IMG/VR virus record: IMGVR_UViG_3300030104_003898
Coordinates: 1-28,400 of that record
Direction: 5' to 3' (one strand)
Length of the DNA stretch: 28,400 bases
Source of the DNA: a virus
The number at the start of each line of letters is the position of its first letter. The first letter of the stretch is position 1. Shown in pieces: positions 14,365-26,357 of this stretch. The notes beneath the pieces are model-generated. The model was given only the letters and a program-made list of their open reading frames with translations, was not told where the DNA came from and ran no database searches. The translations under genes were made by a program, and so were the position numbers.

Positions 14365-15072
14365 ATGGCATTACCTAAGATTAGTGTACCTAAGTACAAA
14401 TTGAAACTACCCTCAGACGGTAGAACTGTGAATTTTAGACCATTTCTTGTAAAGGAGGAGAAAGTCCTTCTCTTAGCTACTGAAGATGGTGATCAAAACG
14501 TTATTGTTTCTGCAATCAAAGATATCATCAAAGATTGTACAGACATTACAGATGTAGAAAAACTTGCTACATTTGATATCGAATTCGTTTTCTTGCAGAT
14601 TCGTACAAAATCTGTTGGTGAAAGTGTAGATGTCAATGTAACTTGTCCTGATGATAATGAAACTACTGTATCAGTTTCTATTCCTTTAGACGAAATTAAA
14701 GTCAAGAAAACTAGAGGTCATAAAAAGGATCTTAAAATTTCTGATGACGTTGCTATTACAATGGGATACCCCACTATTGAAACATTCGTTGCTATGAACT
14801 TTGGTGAGGGTGCTGAGGTTGACCAAGTTTTTGATATGGCAGCTAGTTGTGTAGAATCAATTAGTGATGCTAATCAAGTTTATGATTGTTCTACTGTTCC
14901 TAAAAAAGAACTAATAGAATTTTTTGATCAAATGAATAGCAAGCAATTCATGATGATACAGGAATTTTTTGAAAAAATGCCTAAATTAACTCATACTATT
15001 AAGATTACTAATCCTAATACTGGAGTTGAGAGTGAGGTTGTACTGGAGGGTCTAGCGAGTTTTTTCGAATAG
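14365..15072 (+). CDS. 26: Baseplate hub assembly protein gp26 / tape-measure chaperone
   Basis: The protein is 235 aa and fits the T4 baseplate hub family of gp26: LPKISVPKYKLKLPSDGRTV, FRPFLVKEEKVLLLA, and FVFLQIRTKSVGESV followed by VTCPDDN. The relatives assemble the hub around the tape measure and probably act as its chaperone. The last codons contain T-TTT-TTC (15060-15066) just before GAA TAG. A -1 slip there would replace the last residue with a 64-residue extension ending at 15260. The gene lies directly before two giant tape-measure-like genes, exactly where chaperone genes with frameshifts sit in other tailed phages. Confidence 0.85.
   Translation: MALPKISVPKYKLKLPSDGRTVNFRPFLVKEEKVLLLATEDGDQNVIVSAIKDIIKDCTDITDVEKLATFDIEFVFLQIRTKSVGESVDVNVTCPDDNETTVSVSIPLDEIKVKKTRGHKKDLKISDDVAITMGYPTIETFVAMNFGEGAEVDQVFDMAASCVESISDANQVYDCSTVPKKELIEFFDQMNSKQFMMIQEFFEKMPKLTHTIKITNPNTGVESEVVLEGLASFFE
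15045..15072 (+). promoter_or_regulatory. Predicted -1 programmed ribosomal frameshift signal
   Basis: The slippery heptamer TTTTTTC (15060-15066) is in the correct X-XXY-YYZ register with the gp26 frame. GGAGGG (15045-15050) lies nine bases upstream, at the spacing of the internal Shine-Dalgarno that stimulates -1 frameshifting in E. coli dnaX. The zero-frame stop TAG follows two codons after the heptamer begins its last codon. The -1 frame is open through to 15260. Confidence 0.75.
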
Positions 15073-15260
15073 CTCTTCTTCACACCAATCTACAGTCTTA
15101 TTATGAAGGAAACTTTTCCTTAATGCATCACCATAAATGGGATATCGCTCATATCGATAATCTGATGCCATGGGAAAAGGAGATTTATGTGAATATGTTA
15201 GTCAATTTCCTCAAAGAAGAGGAACGTAGAATGAAGGAGCAACAAGCATCTGGTGGCTAA
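15066..15260 (+). CDS. Frameshift extension of gp26 (gpT-like domain)
   Basis: After a -1 slip on TTT TTC, reading resumes at CGA (15066) and continues for 64 codons to TAA at 15258-15260, giving a fusion of about 298 aa. The extension includes LLHTNLQSYYEGNFSLMHHH, KWDIAHIDNLMPWEKEIYVN and a charged C-terminal helix. Its pattern (a His-rich stretch, then W..x..I..LMPWE.EIY) resembles short domains attached by frameshift to tape-measure chaperones. The final stop overlaps the GTG start of the first giant gene by eight bases. An alternative is independent translation from ATG 15123 (45 aa), with AAGGAA eleven bases upstream; this would be a split gp51-like gene. Confidence 0.7.
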   Translation, partial: RIALLHTNLQSYYEGNFSLMHHHKWDIAHIDNLMPWEKEIYVNMLVNFLKEEERRMKEQQASGG

Positions 15261-18132
15261 ATTACAAGTATACAAATTTGTAAATCCTGGAGTTTCAAAT
15301 CTGAAATCTCCAACAGTTGCTGCTGCTAGAAAACAAACCTTAGCGTTGAATAGACTAGGAGGTACAATTTCCTCAATAGGAACGCTTGTTAGTGATATAG
15401 AAAGGATTTCAATCCGTCAAATTAAGAATGATAAGTTAAGAGCAAAAGCAGAACGTCGTAGAGATAGAAGAGAATTAGATCAGGCTACAGAAGAAGCACT
15501 AGAAAATAAGAAGGCAGCAAAAAATAAAAAACCTAAATTAAGCAAAACATCTTTAAAGATTGCTAAGGGTGGTCTTAGTTGGATAGAAAAATTCTTAGCA
15601 CCGATTGGAAAATTTCTTGGTTTTATAGCTAGAATTGCTATCACAAAGGAAGTACTTGAATGGGTAGGAGATCCTGCTAATATTGAGAAGTTATCAGATT
15701 TTCTAGAGAAGACGCATTTTGTCTTTAAAAAACTATTTGGTTGGGCAGCAGGATTTACTGACAATATTCTAGAAGGATTTTCTTCTTTAACGGATCCTAA
15801 TGGGACATTTATACAAAGGTTAGGTGGTCTTGGATCTATAATGAAGGGTTTGATCGGGTTGAAATACCTGATGAACCCTTTCAGTATTATTACTGATATT
15901 CTAGCACTAGTCGATTTACTTACTGGTGGAGATGGTAAAGGCAAAGGTAAAGGTGGTAAAAATAGAAACAGAAATAGAAACAGAAATAGAAATTATAACC
16001 CAAATCAAAGACCAGGAAGCAAACCTGGTCGAAGATTAAGACCTAAAATCACTACAAGTGGAGGAAGATCAACAGGACCATTTAGAGGAATTAGAGAATT
16101 TTTAAGAAAGACTAAAAAATTCCTTGGGCAAAAACCTAATATAACTTTTGGTGGTAAAGGTAGTAAAGGTAATTGGTTTACTAAACTATTCAGAGGTAAA
16201 CCTGACATAACTACTGGATCAGGTGGTGCCGCAAAAGGTAATTGGTTTACTAAACTATTCAAGGGCAAACCTCAAGTTACTACAGGTACTGGTGGTGTAA
16301 AAGGTAATTGGTTTAAGAATTTATTCAAAAGCAAAGCTGATCCCACTAAGATAACACAAGGGGTGGGTGGTAAATCAAGTAATTTCTTTAGTAAAATATT
16401 CAGCGGTAGTAATGTAACACAGGGTCAAGGTGGACTTAAGTCTAATTTCTGGACTAAAGGTAGGAATCTTATAACAAAGTTTAAACCTGGTGGTCTTATA
16501 CGAGGTGGTGGTAACCTTATAAAAGGTGGTGTTGCTTATGCTGGTATTGACTGGGCAATTACTGAGATCGTAGACGCTGTTATTACTGATCCAATGGGAA
16601 GGTATGTTGATAAGAAACTTGAAAATGCTGTAGATGAAAGATTCTTAAAAACTGGTAGTGAAGCAACTGTAAAATACTATGAAAATGAATTAGAGGCACG
16701 TCAAAAACTAAGAGCAGAACAATCTTGGTGGGGAAAGTTAAATTTAGGGACACGAAATCAATTGGACAATGTGCAGCAAGAAAGGTTGCAACATCAACTT
16801 GATTATGCTAGATCTCTTACAGAAAATAGAGATATTAGTGGTTTATTTTCAAAATATGAAACCTCTAAATCACCGCAAAAGAAGAATGATAATTGGTTTA
16901 CTAATTTATTTAAGAATGACAAGGAGCAAGCAAACAAAGAGATAAAGAAAGAAGAAAAGAAGAAGTCAGGTAATTGGTTTAGTAATCTATTTGGTAAGAA
17001 GGAGGAGAAGAAAGAGAAGAAGAAGGAAGAAAAGAAGGGTAATTGGTTTAGTAATCTATTTGGTAGTAAGAAGGAAGAGAAAAAACAACCTGAAAAGAAG
17101 AAGACAAATTGGTGGTCTGGTCTTTTCTCTAAGAAAAAACCTGAAAAGAAGAAAAAGAAAGGTTGGTGGCCTTTTGAACAGGGTGGAGAACTTCCAGAAT
17201 ACGGCATTGGTGGTTTCTTCAGAAGTATAAAGAAAATTGGTAGTGGTATATGGAATGGTGTAACTAATGTTGTTAATAAAGTAACTAGTAATCCTATAAT
17301 AAGTACTGCATTATCATTCATTCCTGGTATGCAAATACCAATGGCAGTGATTAATGGTATTAGTTCTTTATCGCAGGGTAATATTATGGGTGCTCTTTCT
17401 GCTGGACTAAGTGGATTGGGTGCCTTTGCTAATATCAATACAGTTAATGCTATCAGTCAACCTCAATGGTTGCAGAACTTACGATTTAGTGGTTTTGGTC
17501 AAGGTTTGGCAAATATGTATCATAGCGGTGCTAATGCATGGAGTACCTTAACCAGTGGATTTAATAATTTCATGGGTTCCAAATGGGGACAAATTGGACA
17601 GCAAGTTCTGGGTGGCGACTATATGGGTGCTTTAAATACGTTTAATCCTAAGTGGGGTGGTATTGCTTCTGATATTATGAGTGGTAACTATGGTGGTGCT
17701 TTAAGTGCTTTCAATCCTGAAATGGGTGCGGCGGTTACAAAGGGGATGGCAATGATAGACTCATTTAGGCAAGATCCTATGGGTTTGATTAGTAATATTG
17801 CAGAACAGCAAGGTATGGGAGGACTTCTTAAGGCAGTTACTGGTTTATTTGGTGGTGGTGATAAAATTACTGCTATGACACAAATTGCAGCAGAGATGGG
17901 TATCGATCCTAAAGTGCTTGGTGCAGTAAAGTCAGCACATCAGCAAGCACTAACCGAGGGAGGTATCTCTGCTGAATATGCTATGGAACAAGCTATGGAG
18001 TTTATTCCTATTCCCACGATTATTGAAAAGATCGTTACTATTCCTCAAGCAGTAGCAATAAATACTGGGGGTGGTACCCAAATAATAGTAACTGCACCTA
18101 ATTCTTTACTTGAGAGAGCGAAGGGATCCTAA
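15253..18132 (+). CDS. Giant tail protein 1, probable tape measure (959 aa)
   Basis: The GTG start at 15253 overlaps the frameshift frame. Residues 1-225 form a helical module with hydrophobic stretches (FLGFIARIAITKEVLEW, WVGDPANIEKLSDF) shared with the next gene. Residues 227-250 are Gly/Lys then Asn/Arg repeats (NRNRNRNRN). Next come seven or eight copies of a NWF-like motif (at residues 306, 329, 351, 377, 546, 573, 596, with TNWWSGLF near 618) separated by Gly/Thr or Lys/Glu linkers. Residues 650-900 are hydrophobic and Gly/Ala-rich, with three GxxxGAL repeats. The location after gp26, the length, and the alternating helical and hydrophobic content fit the tape measure (T4 gp29 role). 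At 0.15 nm per helical residue it would span about 144 nm. No direct gp29 match was seen. Confidence 0.7.
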   Translation: MAKLQVYKFVNPGVSNLKSPTVAAARKQTLALNRLGGTISSIGTLVSDIERISIRQIKNDKLRAKAERRRDRRELDQATEEALENKKAAKNKKPKLSKTSLKIAKGGLSWIEKFLAPIGKFLGFIARIAITKEVLEWVGDPANIEKLSDFLEKTHFVFKKLFGWAAGFTDNILEGFSSLTDPNGTFIQRLGGLGSIMKGLIGLKYLMNPFSIITDILALVDLLTGGDGKGKGKGGKNRNRNRNRNRNYNPNQRPGSKPGRRLRPKITTSGGRSTGPFRGIREFLRKTKKFLGQKPNITFGGKGSKGNWFTKLFRGKPDITTGSGGAAKGNWFTKLFKGKPQVTTGTGGVKGNWFKNLFKSKADPTKITQGVGGKSSNFFSKIFSGSNVTQGQGGLKSNFWTKGRNLITKFKPGGLIRGGGNLIKGGVAYAGIDWAITEIVDAVITDPMGRYVDKKLENAVDERFLKTGSEATVKYYENELEARQKLRAEQSWWGKLNLGTRNQLDNVQQERLQHQLDYARSLTENRDISGLFSKYETSKSPQKKNDNWFTNLFKNDKEQANKEIKKEEKKKSGNWFSNLFGKKEEKKEKKKEEKKGNWFSNLFGSKKEEKKQPEKKKTNWWSGLFSKKKPEKKKKKGWWPFEQGGELPEYGIGGFFRSIKKIGSGIWNGVTNVVNKVTSNPIISTALSFIPGMQIPMAVINGISSLSQGNIMGALSAGLSGLGAFANINTVNAISQPQWLQNLRFSGFGQGLANMYHSGANAWSTLTSGFNNFMGSKWGQIGQQVLGGDYMGALNTFNPKWGGIASDIMSGNYGGALSAFNPEMGAAVTKGMAMIDSFRQDPMGLISNIAEQQGMGGLLKAVTGLFGGGDKITAMTQIAAEMGIDPKVLGAVKSAHQQALTEGGISAEYAMEQAMEFIPIPTIIEKIVTIPQAVAINTGGGTQIIVTAPNSLLERAKGS
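15961..15992 (+). repeat. 12-bp tandem repeat encoding Asn-Arg
   Basis: The unit AATAGAAACAGA recurs about two and a half times in frame, following a Gly-Lys repeat. It encodes alternating Asn and Arg in the first giant tail protein and is a likely site of slippage length variation. Confidence 0.8.
16168..17060 (+). repeat. Dispersed repeats encoding the GNWFxxLF motif
   Basis: GGTAATTGGTT is found at 16168, 16237, 16303, 16969 and 17038, with a near copy at 16888. The first two copies extend to a shared 25-base match. Two further copies occur in the next gene at 19101 and 19185. Each encodes G-N-W-(F/L)-x-x-L-F. Identity at DNA level suggests recent amplification or gene conversion. Confidence 0.8.
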
Positions 18133-21005
18133 TGGCAACTATAAAAAAGAATTCAAAAATTAATTTCTATAAATTTGTACAAGTAAAGGTACCTAATGTT
18201 AGTGCAAAAACGAAAATGGAGTTGAAACCCATTATTTCGAATACTGCCGCTATCAATAATTTGGGTGCAACTGTAAACTCTATTGCAGTAATCGTTAAAG
18301 ATTTTAAAAAGATTCAACTTGAAAAGTTAGTACTTTCAAGGAAATCTTTAAAGGATTTTGAAGCAACATTTACAAAAACAAAAAAGAGGAAACCTTTTGC
18401 TGGATTTAGTCCTGCTGCTTTAGTAAAAAAACCTAATTGGTTAGAAGGTCTATTTAAGATGTTGAGTGGACTGATTAAAGCAGCGATTATTATTCCTGCT
18501 TTGAAATGGTTATCTGATCCTGCGAACAGAGAAAAAATATCAAGGATGATCGAAACCCTTTCTAAGTTGCTAACGTTCATCTTTAAAGTCGCAGAATTTG
18601 GTGTTGTTAATACTATTGAAGGATTATATAAGTTACTATCAGATACCTCTGCTCCTTGGGAAAGAATAGGAGGACTTGTACAAGGATTAACTGGACTTGG
18701 AACTTTATTGTTAGGTCTTCGTTGGTTGAGTAATCCAACTAGAATTATTACAGATTTTGGTAATGTACTCATCTTCCTTCATAATAATCTAATTAGAGGT
18801 AGAAGGGGATTACTAGGTAGAGCTGGAGCACTTGGATTAATTGCAGCAACTGCTTATGGTGGATATAAACTTTATGAATACATGAAGGAAGATGGAAGGG
18901 GTGGAAGACCAGATCCAAGAGATGACGGGTCTGAAGAATATGCAGGAGTTGATCAAGCAAGTATAACCTTAGGTGATAGTGGAAACGTAACCCTTGATAA
19001 GGATGGTAGTCTCACAGGTGCGTTAGACTTTACTTTAGGTGAGAATGTTAATATCCAAATAAATACGGATACTGATATAACTCCAGATGATAAGAAGGAA
19101 GGTAATTGGTTAACTAATCTATTCAAAATAGGGAACAGTATCTCTTCTACGGATACTAATACAACTTCAGATGATATGTCTGAAGGTAATTGGTTAACTA
19201 ATCTATTCAAATCTACTGGAGGTTTATTACCTTCATTTGCACAAGGAGGATGGATTAGTGGACCACAATCAGGATATGGAGTTTCATTGGATGGAGGGAG
19301 ATCCACTTCGTTCATCGGACATGGAACTGAGTACGTTGCTAGAAAGAGCGATGGGGGAGCTTTCATCGTTCCTTTTGATACTCCTGGAACAAAAACACAA
19401 CCAAACCTAACAGAAAGGAGGATAAATGAGGGTAAGAGACTAGGATTTGACTTAGATGGTTTTAGTAAAGGAGGAACTTTACCAAAAGATATGATACTTT
19501 CGCAAAAAGCTGCATTTGATCATGTATATAATCTAGCAAAACTAGCGGGAGGAGCAAAATACCCTGAAATTGTTGCTGCTCAGGCAATGCACGAATCAAA
19601 CTATCTAGATCCTAGGATTAATAGTGTTTATAATGCCACAAACAGAACTAATGCTTTCGGTCAAACTGGTGACAGAGGATTTGGTACTATTATTAGAAAG
19701 GGTTTTAAAGTAGGTTGGTCAAAATATGACACTCTATCCCGTGCAGTAGGCGATAATATTAAACTTTGGCATGATGTTACTAATCATCCTGGAAACTATA
19801 ATGCTTTTGGTAATATTTTAGATGGTATTGCTTCAGTTGCACCAGCATATTCACCCAATGCAGATCCTGAAAATATTAAAAAAGGATATACTACTGACAA
19901 GTATAGTGAAGGAATGATCAGAGCATTAAAAGTTGGTGGATTTGATATTAGTAATATGAAAGATAAAACTCCTAAGTCTTCATCTAATAGTGGTTCGGGA
20001 AGAAGACAGACTGGTAATATCTTCTCAAAATTTATGGGTGGTATTAAGAGTATATTTGGTAAAACAGATGAGAGTGATAAGAAGACAAAAACACAAAATA
20101 AAGTAAAGGCTGTCAAACCCGCATCACATCCTGATACAGGTTCTGGATTTACTGTTGCAGGAACAAGGGATCAAAGTGGTAGACCTTTAGTATTCTCAGA
20201 ACCAGCAGCACAAATGTTTGCTGCAGCAATGAGAGATTCTGGAATCGACTTAGGATCATTTGTTGCAAGTTCTGGTAGAAGTAAATCTAAGAACAAGGAA
20301 ATTGGTGGAGATCCTGAGTCATATCATCTATATGGTGAAGCACTTGATATTAATGGTGAAGGATATCAATGGTTGAAAGCAAATGGTAAACGTTTTGGTT
20401 GGCAATATGTTTACAACCATAATCCTGATAGTGCTCACTTTAAGTATGTTGGTGCTAAATCAGGTACTACACCGATTTTATCAGAAGCTGGTAAAGAATA
20501 TGCTGGTGGTAATAGTCTTCATGGACATATAGGTGAAGGTGCTCGTGAGGGTTCTCGTGGAGATAGTGGTAAAGGGACAAATAAACAAGGATCTCTAGAA
20601 TCACAAAAAATGGGAATGGGAAATCTATTTGGAAACCAAGAGAGGGGTGGTGGACAGAAACCAGGAGATAACAAAATCGCATCAGGTAGTGACACCAGGT
20701 CAGCTCAATTCCAACAAGCAAGGCAACAGAAAAGACTAGAGCAACAGACAAAAGAAAGAAATAATGCACGTCGTCAGGTAGCTGAGAGAAGTCAAGAAAT
20801 GATTAAGGAAGTTATGGCAGCAGTTGCTCACCAAAATGGGGTAAATACTCAAGCAATCCAAGCAGCACAAACAGCGTTAGCATCAGTGGCAGGACAAACA
20901 GGTGGAGGTAATCCGACATTGCTTCCAAGTAGTTCTGGTGGAGTCGGATCTATCGCATCTACTTTACAATCTAACCTTAATCCTTTGAGAGGTTTAGTCA
21001 GATGA
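18132..21005 (+). CDS. Giant tail protein 2 with two peptidoglycan hydrolase domains (957 aa)
   Basis: Residues 1-225 are paralogous to giant protein 1 (YKFV, LGATVNSIAVIVKD, WLSDPANREKIS near 126). GNWLTNLF occurs at 324 and 352. Residues 454-600 look like a glucosaminidase (GH73/FlgJ-type) or related lysozyme-fold domain: the putative catalytic Glu is E488 in AQAMHESNY, followed by NAFGQTGDRGFG. Residues 680-775 are an M15 zinc peptidase: H732-x6-D739 in SYHLYGEALD, then D766-x2-H769 in PDSAHFKYVG, as in T5 endolysin. The C-terminus is a Gln/Arg/Lys-rich coiled coil. It probably travels in the tail and cuts glycan and peptide bonds of host murein during DNA entry. The ATG overlaps the upstream stop by one base. 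Confidence 0.78.
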   Translation: MATIKKNSKINFYKFVQVKVPNVSAKTKMELKPIISNTAAINNLGATVNSIAVIVKDFKKIQLEKLVLSRKSLKDFEATFTKTKKRKPFAGFSPAALVKKPNWLEGLFKMLSGLIKAAIIIPALKWLSDPANREKISRMIETLSKLLTFIFKVAEFGVVNTIEGLYKLLSDTSAPWERIGGLVQGLTGLGTLLLGLRWLSNPTRIITDFGNVLIFLHNNLIRGRRGLLGRAGALGLIAATAYGGYKLYEYMKEDGRGGRPDPRDDGSEEYAGVDQASITLGDSGNVTLDKDGSLTGALDFTLGENVNIQINTDTDITPDDKKEGNWLTNLFKIGNSISSTDTNTTSDDMSEGNWLTNLFKSTGGLLPSFAQGGWISGPQSGYGVSLDGGRSTSFIGHGTEYVARKSDGGAFIVPFDTPGTKTQPNLTERRINEGKRLGFDLDGFSKGGTLPKDMILSQKAAFDHVYNLAKLAGGAKYPEIVAAQAMHESNYLDPRINSVYNATNRTNAFGQTGDRGFGTIIRKGFKVGWSKYDTLSRAVGDNIKLWHDVTNHPGNYNAFGNILDGIASVAPAYSPNADPENIKKGYTTDKYSEGMIRALKVGGFDISNMKDKTPKSSSNSGSGRRQTGNIFSKFMGGIKSIFGKTDESDKKTKTQNKVKAVKPASHPDTGSGFTVAGTRDQSGRPLVFSEPAAQMFAAAMRDSGIDLGSFVASSGRSKSKNKEIGGDPESYHLYGEALDINGEGYQWLKANGKRFGWQYVYNHNPDSAHFKYVGAKSGTTPILSEAGKEYAGGNSLHGHIGEGAREGSRGDSGKGTNKQGSLESQKMGMGNLFGNQERGGGQKPGDNKIASGSDTRSAQFQQARQQKRLEQQTKERNNARRQVAERSQEMIKEVMAAVAHQNGVNTQAIQAAQTALASVAGQTGGGNPTLLPSSSGGVGSIASTLQSNLNPLRGLVR

Positions 21006-22381
21006 CAATTAGAAGAAATGAATCGGGGGATGTTGATGTAAGAGTCAACGTCTTTAGGAATGGTCAAAAACTTCAAAGTTCTGACGGCAATGATGACATC
21101 TACGATTTCATTACGGGTATTGAAATCTATGAAAGTATTACTTCATCAACCATAGAGGTACAACTTCTCTTTAATGATGGTTCTGGATTTATAGGTGCTA
21201 TGACTGGATCTGAACAGTTTAGAATTGTAATTAGAGGAACAATTCTTGACAGAGTTTATTATGTTCGAGCATATAATATTGAGGCAAGAACAAGAATGAA
21301 TACTGCAGATTCATTTATTGTTAATTGTGCTAGTGATGAATTTTTCCAGAATGAGATTACTAACGTATTTGGAAATAGTCAAGTTATATTTAATTCCACA
21401 TCATCTTCTGAGATTGTAGAGCAAATTTTGAAGACAGATCAAAGGTATATAAAAACTCAAAAGAAGATTTATATTGAAGAATCTACAAACAAACAGCAGT
21501 TTATAGCAACAAATTGGAGACCATATGATTGTATCTATTGGCTTGCACAAAGGTCAACACGAAAAGCAAGAAAGGGTGGTACTCTTCAAAATGGATTTAT
21601 TTTTTGGGAAAATGGTTTAGGTCTTAATTTTAAGTCTATTGATAAAATTATTGATAATGTAAACAATCAAACTGAGTCAGACAGTAATTTTACTACAGGT
21701 ACGACTAAGTTGTACACCTATGTTTATTCAACAAAATCATCTGGTTCAGATTCATCTGATCAATTTAAAATTGAGACTATAGTATTTCCAGAAGAGAGAG
21801 ACTTCCTAACTGGATTGCGTAATGGTGCTTGGGCAGGATTTAGTATGGGTTTTGATCCTGTTACTGTAACACAATCTAAGATGGGATTGAGTACAGATAT
21901 GTCAGTGAATGCTTACCGTTATGGTATAGATGCGATGTGGCCAAAGATGTCACATTTGGATGAGAGTAAAGCAGTCAATCCATTATCACAATTGGATGAT
22001 AACATTAAACAAATTACTCAGTATCCAAGACGTACAAGATATACTGCTCTATCAAATCAAATTTTTGATCCAAAATTTCAAGATAATCCTCAAAAAAATT
22101 ATGAAGAGTTGGTAGAACTTCAGGCATACCAATGGATGAGGTTTGAGTCTTTAAAGAATATTAAGTTAATGATTAAATTTCCTGGTAATCTTGATCTGTA
22201 TGCAGGATCAGGAATGCAGGTAATTATACCTGCAACATATAAGAGGAATTCTACCACGGATATAGATAGAAAATATAGTGGAAGATATGTTATTGGTGGG
22301 TTGACACATAAGATTGTTGGTAGTAATATGACTACTGAAGCATTATTATTGAAGGATTCGATACCAAGGAAATCTTCGTAA
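21002..22381 (+). CDS. 27: Baseplate hub protein gp27
   Basis: gp27 is the trimeric ring that links the tail tube to the gp5 spike. The 459-aa protein (391 in T4) has the family start VRVNVFRNGQKL, DIYDFITGIEIYESITSSTI and VQLLFNDGSGF. Later come a QFIATNWRPYDCIYWLAQRS domain and ENGLGLNFKSIDKI, typical of the gp27/VgrG-N fold. The start overlaps the giant gene's stop (ATGA). A metabolic cassette of three genes separates it from gp5, its direct partner. Confidence 0.85.
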   Translation: MTIRRNESGDVDVRVNVFRNGQKLQSSDGNDDIYDFITGIEIYESITSSTIEVQLLFNDGSGFIGAMTGSEQFRIVIRGTILDRVYYVRAYNIEARTRMNTADSFIVNCASDEFFQNEITNVFGNSQVIFNSTSSSEIVEQILKTDQRYIKTQKKIYIEESTNKQQFIATNWRPYDCIYWLAQRSTRKARKGGTLQNGFIFWENGLGLNFKSIDKIIDNVNNQTESDSNFTTGTTKLYTYVYSTKSSGSDSSDQFKIETIVFPEERDFLTGLRNGAWAGFSMGFDPVTVTQSKMGLSTDMSVNAYRYGIDAMWPKMSHLDESKAVNPLSQLDDNIKQITQYPRRTRYTALSNQIFDPKFQDNPQKNYEELVELQAYQWMRFESLKNIKLMIKFPGNLDLYAGSGMQVIIPATYKRNSTTDIDRKYSGRYVIGGLTHKIVGSNMTTEALLLKDSIPRKSS

Positions 22382-22393: not shown

Positions 22394-22414
22394 CTAGTGT
22401 ATCAAGGAGGCACT

Positions 22415-22642
22415 ATGAAAACCATAGAAGACCACATCAATAAAGACCAAGAGATCTTACAAGATCCTACAACTAATCCTCAGATGCGTCGCCATATTGA
22501 AGGCGAACTTCATGACCTAGAAGATTATGCTTCTCATCATGCAGCAGAGATTAAAGCAGGAGATCATCACGATCCCAACACAATAGAACTATGGTGTGAC
22601 CAGCATCCAGACGAGCCAGAGTGCTTAGTATATGACGATTGA
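22415..22642 (+). CDS. cp12: CP12-like Calvin cycle inhibitor
   Basis: CP12 joins GAPDH and phosphoribulokinase in an inactive complex; phage copies are thought to block carbon fixation and push carbon to the pentose phosphate pathway for nucleotides. The 75-residue protein ends in the CP12 signature WCDQHPDEPECLVYDD with the redox pair C61 and C70. The helical middle (HIEGELHDLEDYASHHA) stands where host CP12 has AWDxVEEL. The N-terminal cysteine pair of typical host CP12 is absent. I chose ATG 22415 because of the perfect AAGGAGG; a GTG at 22397 lies on top of the predicted transcript start. Its stop overlaps the next gene (TGATG). Confidence 0.85.
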   Translation: MKTIEDHINKDQEILQDPTTNPQMRRHIEGELHDLEDYASHHAAEIKAGDHHDPNTIELWCDQHPDEPECLVYDD

Positions 22643-23073
22643 TGACAAACTTTTTATCATGGTTACTTGGAACTTGGTCTAATAAACATCAAGCACAATC
22701 AGCTCCTACTTTATATAAATCTGTAACTGTTAAGTGGGAGCAAAACGGTGAGTTTATAAATTCTATTCATTGGGGTAGAAAAAAATCTGATGATCCGTAT
22801 TTAAAAACTTACAAGAAATTAGTAGAAGTATCGGATAAAGAAGTTATTTTAGAACATTGGGGTGGAACCTATAGTGGTTTAACTCGCAATAAAGAATGTG
22901 ATATGGTATTAAAATTTGATGGTACAGTATGGATGGGTCAGTTTGATACTGATAATATTCATGCTGAACTTGCTGTGTATGGCACTAAACTTTTTATGAG
23001 AGATAAATTCTTAGACTCTAAAGGTAGGATTGTTTGGGGTGCAGATGAAATATATAAGTTTGTTAGGGTTTAA
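22642..23073 (+). CDS. cpeT: CpeT/CpcT-like phycobiliprotein lyase family protein
   Basis: T-type lyases attach bilins to phycobiliproteins. The 143-residue protein has the family frame: NFLSWLLGTWSNKHQAQSAP at the start, the ECDMVLKFDGTVWMG strand, and IVWGADEIYKFVRV at the end, where family members read VWG..GPYxFxR. The predicted fold is a ten-strand calycin-type barrel. Cyanophage relatives bind bilin, but full lyase activity has been doubtful. The ATG at 22642 overlaps the cp12 stop; a TTG one codon earlier is rejected. It precedes pcyA by two bases, consistent with a bilin-handling pair. Confidence 0.75.
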   Translation: MTNFLSWLLGTWSNKHQAQSAPTLYKSVTVKWEQNGEFINSIHWGRKKSDDPYLKTYKKLVEVSDKEVILEHWGGTYSGLTRNKECDMVLKFDGTVWMGQFDTDNIHAELAVYGTKLFMRDKFLDSKGRIVWGADEIYKFVRV

Positions 23074-23075
23074 TT

Positions 23076-23792
23076 ATGGATTCGGGAAAGTATATAAAAC
23101 CATGGGTTCGTCTTTCAATTGAAGTTGCCAACTACTTGAGAGAAGAATTAAAAAGTTTTCCTGATGTTACACATATGGAAAACAAATATCCTATTGTGGA
23201 AAATGATAATGTATTCATTATCAATGAAATGCATCAGAGTAAGAAACTTAGAAAGATGCATTTGGAAACTGGATACACGGAAAATATTTCTGTAATGCAT
23301 TGTGTATTATATCCTATTCCTGATTATCCTATACCTATTTTTGGTGCTGATATTGTAGAAACTCCTAATGCAGTTACTGCAGCAATTGTTGATATATCAC
23401 CTGTGTTTGGAACTCAAAAATATGTGGATGTATATAAAGACATAGCATACAAGTATAAGTTTAAAGAGAATAGAGTCTTACCTTTATGGACTGATGAGGT
23501 TTTCTCACAAGGATGTAAGTTTATGCGTATTAGAACGGATGAAGAAAGAGAAATGTATATGAATCTAATTAAAGAATCTATTCAACTCTATAAAGGTATA
23601 GTAGAAAATTCTGAGTTTGATATGGAATGGATCAATACTATGAAGAGGATTGATGATCAGATTTATTATTGTAAACAACAAAGAAAGAATAAAAAGACTA
23701 AAGCAGTTTTGAGTCAATGGTTCGATCCCCAATGGGCAGAAGATTACATCAATGAAATTCTCTTTGACACGAATGTAATAAATAAATCGTAA
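23076..23792 (+). CDS. pcyA: Phycocyanobilin:ferredoxin oxidoreductase PcyA
   Basis: PcyA reduces biliverdin IXalpha to phycocyanobilin in two two-electron steps using ferredoxin. At 238 aa it aligns along its full length by eye with cyanobacterial PcyA: LRKMHLETG, SVMHCVLYPIPDYPIPIFGA, DIVETPNAVTAAIVDISP, IYYCKQQRKNKKTKAVL and WAEDYINEILFD. Residues matching the Synechocystis active site are kept: H62 and E64 (H74/E76), H75 (H88) and D92 (D105). Retention of the Glu needed for exovinyl reduction points to phycocyanobilin as product rather than phycoerythrobilin. It lies between cpeT and gp5. Confidence 0.93.
   Translation: MDSGKYIKPWVRLSIEVANYLREELKSFPDVTHMENKYPIVENDNVFIINEMHQSKKLRKMHLETGYTENISVMHCVLYPIPDYPIPIFGADIVETPNAVTAAIVDISPVFGTQKYVDVYKDIAYKYKFKENRVLPLWTDEVFSQGCKFMRIRTDEEREMYMNLIKESIQLYKGIVENSEFDMEWINTMKRIDDQIYYCKQQRKNKKTKAVLSQWFDPQWAEDYINEILFDTNVINKS
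23777..23784 (+). promoter_or_regulatory. Late promoter for gp5
   Basis: AATAAATA sits inside the last codons of pcyA. The predicted start near 23790 lies just ahead of AAGGA (23791-23795) and the gp5 ATG at 23808. Confidence 0.5.
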
Positions 23793-23807: not shown

Positions 23808-26357
23808 ATGTCATCAATTGAAGGAATTACTAATGAACCTGCCGTAAACTTTGTAGGGAAAGACGGATTTTTCTGGTGGGTTGGTGAAGTTGAAGATAAT
23901 GAAGACCCTATGGAGTTAGGTAGGGTTAGAGTTCGTGTGCTTGGATATTATACTAATGTAAGAGGTGGGACGACAGCAGATCTTCCTACAGAAAATCTTC
24001 CATGGGCAACAGTATTACAACATACATGCCAACCAGGAAATGATGGTCAGGGTGAAAGTTCTGGTCAACTGCAACCTGGTGCTATTGTTATGGGTTTCTT
24101 CATGGATGGAGAGTCTGCTCAAATGCCAATAGTTATTGGTGTTATGAGAGTTAAGAAATCTGCAGAGTCACAGGAGAAGAAAGTATTTGCCTTTACTGGT
24201 GAGAACATGGAACCTGGCGTTGGTCCCAATATGACCACAATGACACCTGGCAATCCTAACTCAAGTATGGCAGCGACAAAGGAGGAAGGATTTCATAGGG
24301 CAAATATTGCTAACACTGTAGATCTTCCTAACCAAAAGGGTGAGAATCAGAGTGCTGCTATTTCTGGTAGTGGTTCTCCTAATAATATAGGAACTGTGAT
24401 GAATGGTAGTGCTGGTAATCCCATCAAACCAAGAAATCCAGATAAACCTATTCCTGCTGCTAATGGTGTTGGTGGTCCTTGGAAGACGTTAGAGTATAAG
24501 TTATCATATCTTGTAGAAGATCTTGCAGATCATGCTGGTTCTTTGATTCGTGCAGAGGATGGTGAGTTCTTAGATGTTGTTACTGGTAAGTTAGTTAGTG
24601 CAAAACAACTTACGGTAAGACTTCAAAATTTCTTGAGTGGTGTATTCGCTCAAGTAGTTGCTGCAATGCGTCAAGCACTTGCTAATCTTGCCGAACAATT
24701 AGAGTTGGTTAATCTTCTTGGTGGTGCAACTGGTGTACCATTTGTTGTGTTTACAGCAATTCAAGCAGCAGTTAAAGCGATTCTTTCATCTCTTTGTAAT
24801 ATTGATAGTAAGTTACTTAGTTTTATTTCAGATCCTATAGGAAGTATTGTTGGATATCTTGAAAGTTTTCTTGATGGGTTGATTGATAAAGCAACCATGG
24901 TTATGCAGGGTGTTCAAGCAGCAATCGATGGTGTTATCTGTCAAGTTCAAAGACTTCTTGATCAAGTTTTAGGTATTGTTGATACAGTATCATCAATCGT
25001 AGATGGTATTGGTAAAGCAAAAGAAATTATTGATGCATGGAAAGCAGGTAGTGAAATTTTTGAAGCAGGAACTGATCTTCTTAAGAAAGGTATTACTAGC
25101 ATTACTGGATTGATTCAACTGTTCATTAAGTTTGCTGGTAGTAATTGTGATCGTAAACCTGATGGTGGTAAAGATACGGTAGGTTGGTATCCTTTATTTG
25201 GTGTTACTCATTGTACTCCTGAAGAACTTGCAGAAATTAACGCAATTAGAGGACAGAGTAGAGGAACTTGTGGTGGTAGTGCAGGATCTGGTGGTCTTTT
25301 TGATAATATTTTCAATGAAGCAGATCCATATTTAACTGCCGCTAAAACTTTCTTAGATGGTTCCTATGAAATGTTTGTTGGAACTCCTGGTCGTCAGGCA
25401 AGTGTAAATAAAAAAGCAAGTGGAACAACATCAACATCTGTAAAGATAAATCAGAACGAGTATGCCAAGTTCAATGCTCGTAAAGAGATTAGGAAACAAA
25501 ATCCAGACATTGATGCAGATGAACTTGAAAGACAAGTAGATGCTTCCGTAAAATCGGCAAATGGTGGTAAGGGTGATACTGGTTCTTTAGTTGCTGACCA
25601 TACAACATATGCTGGTAATTACACAGAAGAAACTCATGGTGACCACTGTAAACAAATTGACGGTGATCATGTTGTAAACGTCGATGGTGATTATTTCTTA
25701 AAGATTACAGGTGATTGTCATATTGAAGTTGGTGGTGGTTTCTTCTTTGATGCTGAAGGTGCTCCTAAAGTTGTAGATAAAAAAGGTAATAAGAAGAACG
25801 AAAAAGTTCAAAAGCATACAATCAAATTTGGATCTGATGTTGACATCAATACTGTTGGTGCTAAGTTTGAAGTTCAAGGTGCAGAATTTAATGTAGGATC
25901 TGTTTCTAGTAAGTTTACTAGCAGTGTTTTTGAATCTAGTGGTGGACAAGCAGCTATTTCTGCAGGAGAAGTTATTATTAGTGGAGATAACTCTATTGAT
26001 CTCATTACACCTTCATTAGTTGAAATGATTAATACACCACCTTCACCTATTCCTAAGGCAATTACAGGTATTCGTAGAATGGTAGGTGGTTCAGTTGAAA
26101 CAGTTATGGTACCTGGTATGTCTTCTGATGCTATTCCTAGGTATATTATTGCTAATCCACTTGGACCATATTCATTGACATGTGGTACAACAGGATATAA
26201 CTGTAACGTTACGACTGGAATGTATAATGTCAATGTTGTAGCAGGTGCAATGATAATGAATGCAAGTCTTGCTTGTACAATGACCTGTGGTACTGGTATG
26301 CTTCTTGAAGCAGGGGCAGCAGTACTAATCCTTGGTAAGACAGTCTTTATCAACTAA
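23808..26357 (+). CDS. 5: Baseplate central spike gp5 without lysozyme domain
   Basis: The N-terminal OB-fold is clear (FFWWVGEVEDNEDPMELGRV, RVLGYY, LPWATVLQH, QPGAIVMGFFMDGE, MPIVIGVMR; residues 20-120). From about residue 600 to 849 comes the spike beta-helix: GDHCKQIDGDHVVNVDGDYF repeats, ending in short Gly/Cys/Thr strands at the tip. The middle is not a T4 lysozyme. Residues 224-448 are instead helical and partly amphipathic or hydrophobic (FLSGVFAQVVAAMRQALANL, LLSFISDPIGSIVGYLESFL). The 849 aa compares with 575 in T4. It forms the membrane-piercing tip with gp27. Confidence 0.85.
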   Translation: MSSIEGITNEPAVNFVGKDGFFWWVGEVEDNEDPMELGRVRVRVLGYYTNVRGGTTADLPTENLPWATVLQHTCQPGNDGQGESSGQLQPGAIVMGFFMDGESAQMPIVIGVMRVKKSAESQEKKVFAFTGENMEPGVGPNMTTMTPGNPNSSMAATKEEGFHRANIANTVDLPNQKGENQSAAISGSGSPNNIGTVMNGSAGNPIKPRNPDKPIPAANGVGGPWKTLEYKLSYLVEDLADHAGSLIRAEDGEFLDVVTGKLVSAKQLTVRLQNFLSGVFAQVVAAMRQALANLAEQLELVNLLGGATGVPFVVFTAIQAAVKAILSSLCNIDSKLLSFISDPIGSIVGYLESFLDGLIDKATMVMQGVQAAIDGVICQVQRLLDQVLGIVDTVSSIVDGIGKAKEIIDAWKAGSEIFEAGTDLLKKGITSITGLIQLFIKFAGSNCDRKPDGGKDTVGWYPLFGVTHCTPEELAEINAIRGQSRGTCGGSAGSGGLFDNIFNEADPYLTAAKTFLDGSYEMFVGTPGRQASVNKKASGTTSTSVKINQNEYAKFNARKEIRKQNPDIDADELERQVDASVKSANGGKGDTGSLVADHTTYAGNYTEETHGDHCKQIDGDHVVNVDGDYFLKITGDCHIEVGGGFFFDAEGAPKVVDKKGNKKNEKVQKHTIKFGSDVDINTVGAKFEVQGAEFNVGSVSSKFTSSVFESSGGQAAISAGEVIISGDNSIDLITPSLVEMINTPPSPIPKAITGIRRMVGGSVETVMVPGMSSDAIPRYIIANPLGPYSLTCGTTGYNCNVTTGMYNVNVVAGAMIMNASLACTMTCGTGMLLEAGAAVLILGKTVFIN

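What the first reader, a model, noticed from the sequence alone, without database searches (positions are those of the whole stretch)
19491..20460. Dual peptidoglycan hydrolase built into a tape-measure-like protein
Seen: an AQAMHESNY glutamate motif (E488) with a following NAFGQTGD, and an M15-type set H732, D739, D766, H769. Known: GH73-type and M15 enzymes cut the glycan and peptide parts of murein respectively; T5 endolysin uses the same DxxH form. Inferred: cell-wall digestion for DNA entry is carried by this protein, not by the gp5 spike.
Basis: partly seen in the sequence, partly recalled or inferred. Interest (0 to 1): 0.7.

Follow-up and report, generated by a model that had tools for sequence, protein, structure and literature searches.

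The report
Swappable wall-cutting cassette in phage tail
A virus of ocean cyanobacteria carries a tail-gene protein with two cell-wall-cutting enzymes side by side, and related viruses have replaced that pair of enzymes wholesale while keeping the rest of the protein, which points to a swappable tool for breaking into host cells.

Summary
ORF 18132-21005 (957 aa) carries a GH73 glucosaminidase domain (residues 447-605, E488) followed by an M15 zinc peptidase domain (661-790; H732, D739, H769). GH73 rests on a domain-only AlphaFold model whose best PDB matches are GH73 enzymes (AtlA Z 13.5, Auto Z 13.1) and on a 58%-identical relative over Pfam's cut-off. M15 rests on Pfam, a PDB profile match and fold. 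The claimed DxxH base D766 is not conserved (D 7, G 7, E 2, N 1 of 17). The gp5 spike keeps T4's OB and beta-helix parts but no recognisable lysozyme.

Two relatives 90% identical in DNA on both sides carry unrelated 1.1-kb cassettes; 38 representatives hold several combinations, mostly one glycan cutter plus one peptide/amide cutter.

Homologous pairs were found by mass spectrometry in S-SCSM1 and S-CREM2 virions, so a role in entry is likely but unproven. "Tape measure" stays open. New variant of a known kind.

The parts
18132..21005 (+). Second protein of the pair (957 aa, PHROG 1200 'endolysin'): chassis plus two-enzyme cassette
18132..18890 (+). Chassis N-terminal part, residues 1-253, helix-rich, paralogous to the first protein
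   Evidence: PHROG cross-matches; N-terminal search; conservation
19209..19475 (+). Chassis middle part, residues 360-448, GGWISGPQSGY..FIGHGTEYV motif
   Evidence: conserved across relatives with unrelated cassettes
19464..20570 (+). Exchangeable cassette, approximate limits transferred from the L011/L033 breakpoints
   Evidence: DNA comparison of relatives; segment identities
19470..19946 (+). GH73 glucosaminidase domain, residues 447-605
   Evidence: Pfam sub-threshold here, relative over cut-off, fold
19593..19595 (+). E488, presumed catalytic acid
   Evidence: invariant in 26 of 26
20112..20501 (+). M15 zinc peptidase domain, residues 661-790
   Evidence: Pfam over cut-off, PDB profile, fold
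20325..20327 (+). H732, presumed zinc ligand
   Evidence: present in all 17 rows, which were selected on it
20346..20348 (+). D739, presumed zinc ligand
   Evidence: present in all 17 rows, which were selected on it
20436..20438 (+). H769, presumed zinc ligand
   Evidence: invariant in 17 of 17
20427..20429 (+).
   Evidence: D 7, G 7, E 2, N 1 of 17
20748..21002 (+). Chassis C-terminal part, residues 873-957
   Evidence: conserved across cassette types
15253..18132 (+). First protein of the pair (959 aa, PHROG 790), no enzyme domain found
14365..15072 (+). gp26-like baseplate hub protein
   Evidence: PHROG 150; same place in P-SSM7
21002..22381 (+). Tail protein, PHROG 350, next gene of the tail operon
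23808..26357 (+). gp5 central spike (849 aa): OB domain and beta-helix, no recognisable lysozyme

Best explanation
The protein is a virion-associated, tail-internal murein hydrolase of a T4-like cyanophage. A conserved chassis (residues 1-253, 360-448, 873-957) assembles in the tail tube or hub beside its paralogue. Between the chassis parts sits an exchangeable two-enzyme cassette: here a GH73 glucosaminidase that cuts the glycan strand and an M15 metallopeptidase that cuts the peptide stems. On tail contraction the protein leaves the tube ahead of or with the DNA and opens the wall locally, doing the work that the gp5 lysozyme does in T4. Shown by computation: both folds, conserved core residues, lack of a recognisable gp5 lysozyme, the paired paralogues, the swapped cassettes. 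Reported by others: homologous pairs in virion preparations. Inferred: activity, location inside the tube, timing.
For: Domains and folds. E488 in 26 of 26 GH73-type rows. Gene place between gp26 and the PHROG 350 tail protein, with gp51 in P-SSM7. Proteins in the same gene place in S-SCSM1 (GH73 and VanY) and S-CREM2 (GH19 and lysozyme) are in virion proteomes. gp5 lacks a recognisable lysozyme in 24 of 24 relatives. Cassette exchange: 1.1 kb without similarity between 90% identical flanks in L011 and L033; 15 type changes on the chassis tree.
Against: No activity or localisation data for this protein. Both virion papers allow carry-over or capsid packaging. The S-SZBM1 virion table names no endolysin or lysozyme (its genome was not mapped here). 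D766 is not conserved. The full-length model is poor outside the M15 domain. In P-SSM7 no other lysin was found among eight families, which also fits a role in release.
Confidence: 0.72

Rival explanations
1. It is the phage's endolysin for release at the end of infection, as PHROG 1200 and the RefSeq record of P-SSM7 name it, and occurs in virion preparations only as carry-over. A protein with both roles is a milder form of this.
For: Annotation as endolysin. In P-SSM7 none of six other lysin families matched, and M15_3 and Glucosaminidase matched only in this protein; a second record of 174,079 bases had GH24 and M15_3 only in its second protein.
Against: Sits inside the tail operon and shares its N-terminal chassis with a tail-operon neighbour that has no enzyme. 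Peptide counts in S-CREM2 virions (73 and 71 unique peptides) exceed those of the portal (53) and the central spike proteins (25 and 40). The release reading gives no role to a conserved chassis of more than 400 residues.
Confidence: 0.17
2. It is the tail tape measure protein itself (alone or together with its paralogue), with the hydrolases built in, as in TM4.
For: No tape measure or gp29 is annotated in P-SSM7. Both pair proteins are longer in S-CREM2 (418 nm; 1565 and 1456 aa) than in S-N03 (138 nm; 933 and 722 aa) and S-H34 (129 nm; 936 and 735 aa), whereas the homologue of ORF124 spans nearly the same length in all. L110, which shares the GH73-type domain and weakly the N-terminus, matches a tape-measure PHROG.
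Against: Length is not proportional to tail length over five phages. The window protein's own parts match no tape-measure PHROG except weak noise. Two paralogues compete for the role; the enzyme-free first protein is as good a candidate. This is compatible with the best explanation rather than its opposite.
Confidence: 0.35
3. The domains are inactive relics or wall-binding modules without catalysis.
For: D766 is G, E or N in 10 of 17 relatives; the GH73 domain of the window scores only 15.8 bits against a cut-off of 30.2.
Against: E488, N507, F509, G510 and Y591 are invariant in 26 of 26, H769 in 17 of 17. The cassettes that replace it belong mostly to other wall-hydrolase families.
Confidence: 0.08

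Closest known systems
Virion-associated glucosaminidase (ORF213) and D-Ala-D-Ala carboxypeptidase (ORF214) of Synechococcus phage S-SCSM1 (PMC9602691, section 13 read)
   Same: Same gene places, a GH73 and an M15/VanY enzyme, both in the virion proteome; entry or release proposed.
   Different: There the two enzymes sit one on each protein of the pair; here both sit on the second protein. The paper does not describe, in the section read, a chassis, paralogy or exchange.
Tape measure protein with murein hydrolase motif of mycobacteriophage TM4 (PMC1796659, abstract read)
   Same: Hydrolase inside a long tail-interior protein that helps DNA injection.
   Different: Siphovirus; one small motif; not required for viability. 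Here two enzymes on one of two paralogues in a T4-like phage; tape measure role not shown.
Dual-activity baseplate hub gp15 of cyanophage A-1(L) (PMC10966104, passages read)
   Same: Cyanophage tail with glycan-side and peptide-side enzymes in one protein, tested on host cells.
   Different: Enzymes are inserted in the hub protein; the tape measure gp13 is separate.
gp5 tail lysozyme of phage T4
   Same: Works like it: virion-borne murein cutting during entry (function recalled; PDB entries listed).
   Different: In this phage gp5 keeps OB and beta-helix only; the enzymes are in another protein.
GH73 enzymes AtlA (7qfu) and Auto (3fi7)
   Same: Same fold: 139 and 135 residues aligned at 2.8 A; conserved E and C-terminal GYxTDxxY-like letters seen in typical GH73 rows too.
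   Different: 16-18% identity; the window type has HES/HET and NAFGQTG forms of the motifs.

Membership tests
GH73 glucosaminidase | Match to PF01832 over its curated cut-off | tested here: inconclusive
   15.8 vs 30.2 bits in the window protein; a protein with a 58% identical domain reaches 31.8 bits (L110).
GH73 glucosaminidase | GH73 fold | tested here: met
   Domain model pLDDT 80.9; AtlA Z 13.5, Auto Z 13.1, FlgJ-type about 11, MltE 7.5; Foldseek E 2.3e-5 and 5.2e-4.
GH73 glucosaminidase | Conserved catalytic glutamate | tested here: met
   E488 in 26 of 26, typical GH73 rows included.
GH73 glucosaminidase | Glycan cleavage | not testable with these tools
   Needs zymogram and muropeptide analysis.
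Peptidase M15 | Match to an M15 Pfam family over its cut-off | tested here: met
   PF08291 25.5 vs 23.2 bits.
Peptidase M15 | Zinc ligand set H..D..H | tested here: met
   H732, D739, H769 present; H769 in 17 of 17; rows were selected on the first two.
Peptidase M15 | M15 fold | tested here: met
   VanXYg Z 7.7, S. albus G DD-peptidase 7.5, VanX 7.5, about 100 residues at 3 A; Z under 8, so read together with the sequence matches.
Peptidase M15, DxxH form as in T5 endolysin | Conserved acid three residues before the last zinc histidine | tested here: not met
   D 7, G 7, E 2, N 1 of 17. The T5 comparison itself is recalled.
Tail tape measure protein | Length proportional to tail length | tested here: inconclusive
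   Five phages: longer in the 418-nm phage, no common slope.
Tail tape measure protein | Sequence match to known tape measure families | tested here: inconclusive
   None at useful E for the window protein; tape-measure PHROG matches only in more distant relatives that share the GH73-type domain (L110, L114).
Virion-associated lysin | Presence in the virion | not tested
   Not for this phage; literature on proteins in the same gene place in S-SCSM1 and S-CREM2.
Endolysin (release) | Needed for host lysis, with holin or secretion route | not testable with these tools
   No holin annotated in P-SSM7; signal sequence not tested.

The most novel reading that the evidence does not exclude
The chassis is a general carrier whose entry-lysin cassette is replaced in one step by exchange in the flanking chassis DNA, under selection either from host wall chemistry or, by analogy with the T4 Spackle protein that blocks the gp5 lysozyme (abstract), from periplasmic inhibitors that resident phages make against a particular entry lysin. 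Cassette type would then predict host range or superinfection compatibility among marine cyanophages.
Probability: 0.2. Interest if true: 0.75.

Novelty: new variant of a known kind. Interest (0 to 1): 0.52.

Why it matters
Cyanomyoviruses are very common in the sea, yet how they cross the wall is poorly assigned: their gp5 has no recognisable lysozyme and these genes carry the label 'endolysin'. If this pair is the entry lysin, a mislabelled family (PHROG 790/1200) gets a function, and cassette type becomes a readable trait that can be tested against host range. It also leaves the release enzyme of these phages as an open question.

Tried and rejected
Bacterial relatives of the GH73-type domain: one genome-contig scan found none, so a host origin of the cassette is not supported at that sensitivity. 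A PDB search by sequence with the GH73 alignment gave nothing at E 1 or less; the fold search settled it. Profile comparison of window-type and typical GH73 rows gave 89% probability but over 38 columns only, so I rely on the fold. The large ORF124 protein of S-CREM2 (by gene place the counterpart of VrlC in P-SSM7) as tape measure: rejected as explanation of the long tail, because its homologues span nearly the same length in short-tailed phages. Absence of other folds in the full-length fold list is not read as evidence, since the model is poor there. Three cassettes (L020, L043, L033) show M15-like H..D..H and lysozyme-like ES..GGYNAV letters by eye, but the one scanned matches Pfam only weakly (M15_4, E 0.059) and the PDB search is weak, so they are not counted as assigned. 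Pfam matches counted at E 0.01 include several under the curated cut-off (for example L046 Amidase_2 23.9 vs 26 and Hydrolase_2 22.6 vs 27). Papers were read as passages or named sections, TM4 as abstract; the listings of searches showed no paper that describes the chassis/cassette arrangement, which says nothing about papers outside that library or beyond those listings.

Full report
Where it is. The window is a 28,400-base IMG/VR virus record. Its nearest named relative found is Prochlorococcus phage P-SSM7, 81.4% identical in this protein, a member of Kyanoviridae. The gene run is head closure, tail tube, gp26-like hub, first protein (15253-18132, PHROG 790), second protein (18132-21005, PHROG 1200), PHROG 350 tail protein, then CpeT-like and ferredoxin oxidoreductase genes, then gp5. 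P-SSM7 shows the same order, with gp51 after gp26 and CP12 before cpeT.

Observation. All stated residues are present. The M15 domain is over the Pfam cut-off; the GH73 domain is below it in this protein, but proteins with relative domains (L107, L110, L114, L119) match PF01832 at E 1.6e-4 to 2.6e-7, L110 over the cut-off. Aligned with four typical GH73 rows, 15 columns are invariant, E488, N507, F509, G510, G585 and Y591 among them. The domain-only model (26 rows, pLDDT 80.9, pTM 0.80) matches AtlA (Z 13.5, 139 residues, 2.8 A), Auto (13.1), a type VI effector-immunity complex (11.5), FlgJ-type hydrolases and the Thermotoga enzyme (about 11), with lytic transglycosylase MltE at 7.5. The full-length model is poor (mean pLDDT 50.6) except for the M15 domain, which matches VanXYg, the S. 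albus G DD-peptidase and VanX at Z 7.5-7.7. The profile search of PDB sequences gives the S. albus enzyme at E 1.1e-4 and D-Ala-D-Ala carboxypeptidases at about 0.1.

Correction. Which residue serves as base is open. The 17 rows were chosen for having H732 and D739, so those two counts are not independent evidence.

gp5. Of 24 non-redundant relatives, all match Gp5_OB and none a lysozyme family at E 0.01. The profile matches the OB part of T4 gp5 (profile positions 22-103) and T4 gp5 C-terminal fragments at about 599-645. Between them lies a helix-rich stretch with weak similarity to tape-measure families. A diverged lysozyme fold cannot be excluded without a model.

Pair and chassis. N-terminal searches with the window's two proteins sorted ORFs into 72 'first' and 79 'second', fragments included. 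After keeping complete ORFs (66 first, 63 second) and clustering at 85% there were 38 first and 38 second representatives. For alignment A1 I used 37 of these 38 second proteins (L064, a 514-aa ORF, was left out) plus L004 of P-SSM7. Pfam at E 0.01 in those 38: M15_3 17, Glucosaminidase 12, Amidase_2 11, Hydrolase_2 9, Phage_lysozyme 3, SLT 2, Phage_lysozyme2 2, and two other families once each. Among 38 first proteins the only wall-enzyme match is VanY, once, in S-CREM1.

Cassette exchange. Seeds taken mostly from Pfam-matched members assign the 38 second proteins as: GH73 window type + M15 10; typical GH73 + M15 3; GH24 lysozyme + M15 3; Amidase_2 + Hydrolase_2 11; Amidase_2 + SLT 2; Amidase_2 alone 2; unassigned + M15 1; typical GH73 + unassigned 1; unassigned single 1; a two-part unassigned type 3; the S-CREM1 type annotated NlpC/P60 1. 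So 29 of 38 pair a glycan cutter with a peptide or amide cutter, taking Hydrolase_2 as the former (recalled, from SleB). Chassis and cassette have different histories. The window and L020 are 82%, 82% and 81% identical in the three chassis parts but 22-24% in the cassette, which is alignment noise; the window and L018 are 48% and 36% in the N- and C-terminal parts but 73-75% in the cassette. On a tree of the N-terminal part, cassette types need 15 changes (least possible 9; there L072 and L047 were counted with Amidase_2 + Hydrolase_2); types still cluster more than shuffled labels do, and L011 and L033, sisters at SH-aLRT 95, carry different types. Their DNA is 90% identical over 5.1 kb before and 2.3 kb after, with no match over the 1.1 kb between; the breakpoints lie just before the GH73 domain and just after the M15 domain.

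Virion and entry. S-SCSM1 ORF213 (GH73) and ORF214 (VanY) hold the places of the first and second proteins and were found in its virion proteome; the authors propose entry or release and warn of carry-over. S-CREM2 ORF208 (GH19) and ORF209 (lysozyme), in the same gene places, gave 73 and 71 unique peptides; the authors suggest packaging in the capsid. That these two pairs are homologous to the window's pair rests on gene place and on annotation; I did not align them with the window. The S-SZBM1 table names no endolysin or lysozyme; I did not map that genome. In P-SSM7 none of Phage_lysozyme, Amidase_2, NLPC_P60, SLT, M23 and CHAP matched, and M15_3 and Glucosaminidase matched once each, both in this protein; a second record of 174,079 bases had only GH24 and M15_3, both in its second protein. 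These phages may therefore have no other recognisable lysin of these families, which keeps a second role in release possible.

Tape measure. Tail length in nm, then first/second length in aa: S-H34 129, 936/735; S-N03 138, 933/722; S-CREM1 165, 1016/991; S-SCSM1 173, 950/1131; S-CREM2 418, 1565/1456. The direction fits a ruler role, the slope does not.

Verdict. The domain claims are right, one residue claim is not, the entry claim is likely, the tape-measure label is open. Virion-borne murein hydrolases in this gene place were already in print for S-SCSM1; the exchangeable two-enzyme cassette on a paired chassis is the part I did not find described in the listings searched.

Noticed in passing
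window 23808-26357: gp5 carries a helix-rich stretch of roughly 220 residues (about 230-450) where T4 gp5 has its lysozyme, with weak matches to tape-measure PHROGs.
   Followed up: partly
window 22397-23792: Host-type metabolic genes (CpeT-like, ferredoxin oxidoreductase; CP12 in the matching place of P-SSM7) sit between the tail operon and gp5.
   Followed up: no
L082:13179-13541: In S-CREM1 a gene annotated 'rare lipoprotein A' stands just before gp5; RlpA proteins can be wall enzymes (recalled), so a further entry enzyme is possible.
   Followed up: no
L028 second protein residues 441-735; also L027, L054, S-CREM2 second protein: A shared cassette module without a significant Pfam match recurs in four proteins of different make-up; possibly an undescribed wall-active domain.
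   Followed up: partly
L107-L121: The window-type GH73 domain also occurs (40-61% identical) in long proteins without this chassis, some with tape-measure or PHROG 35997 similarity.
   Followed up: partly
L217:28444-30594: P-SSM7 gene annotated 'peptidase' (716 aa) has no Pfam match at E 0.1; it could be the missing release enzyme or something else.
   Followed up: no
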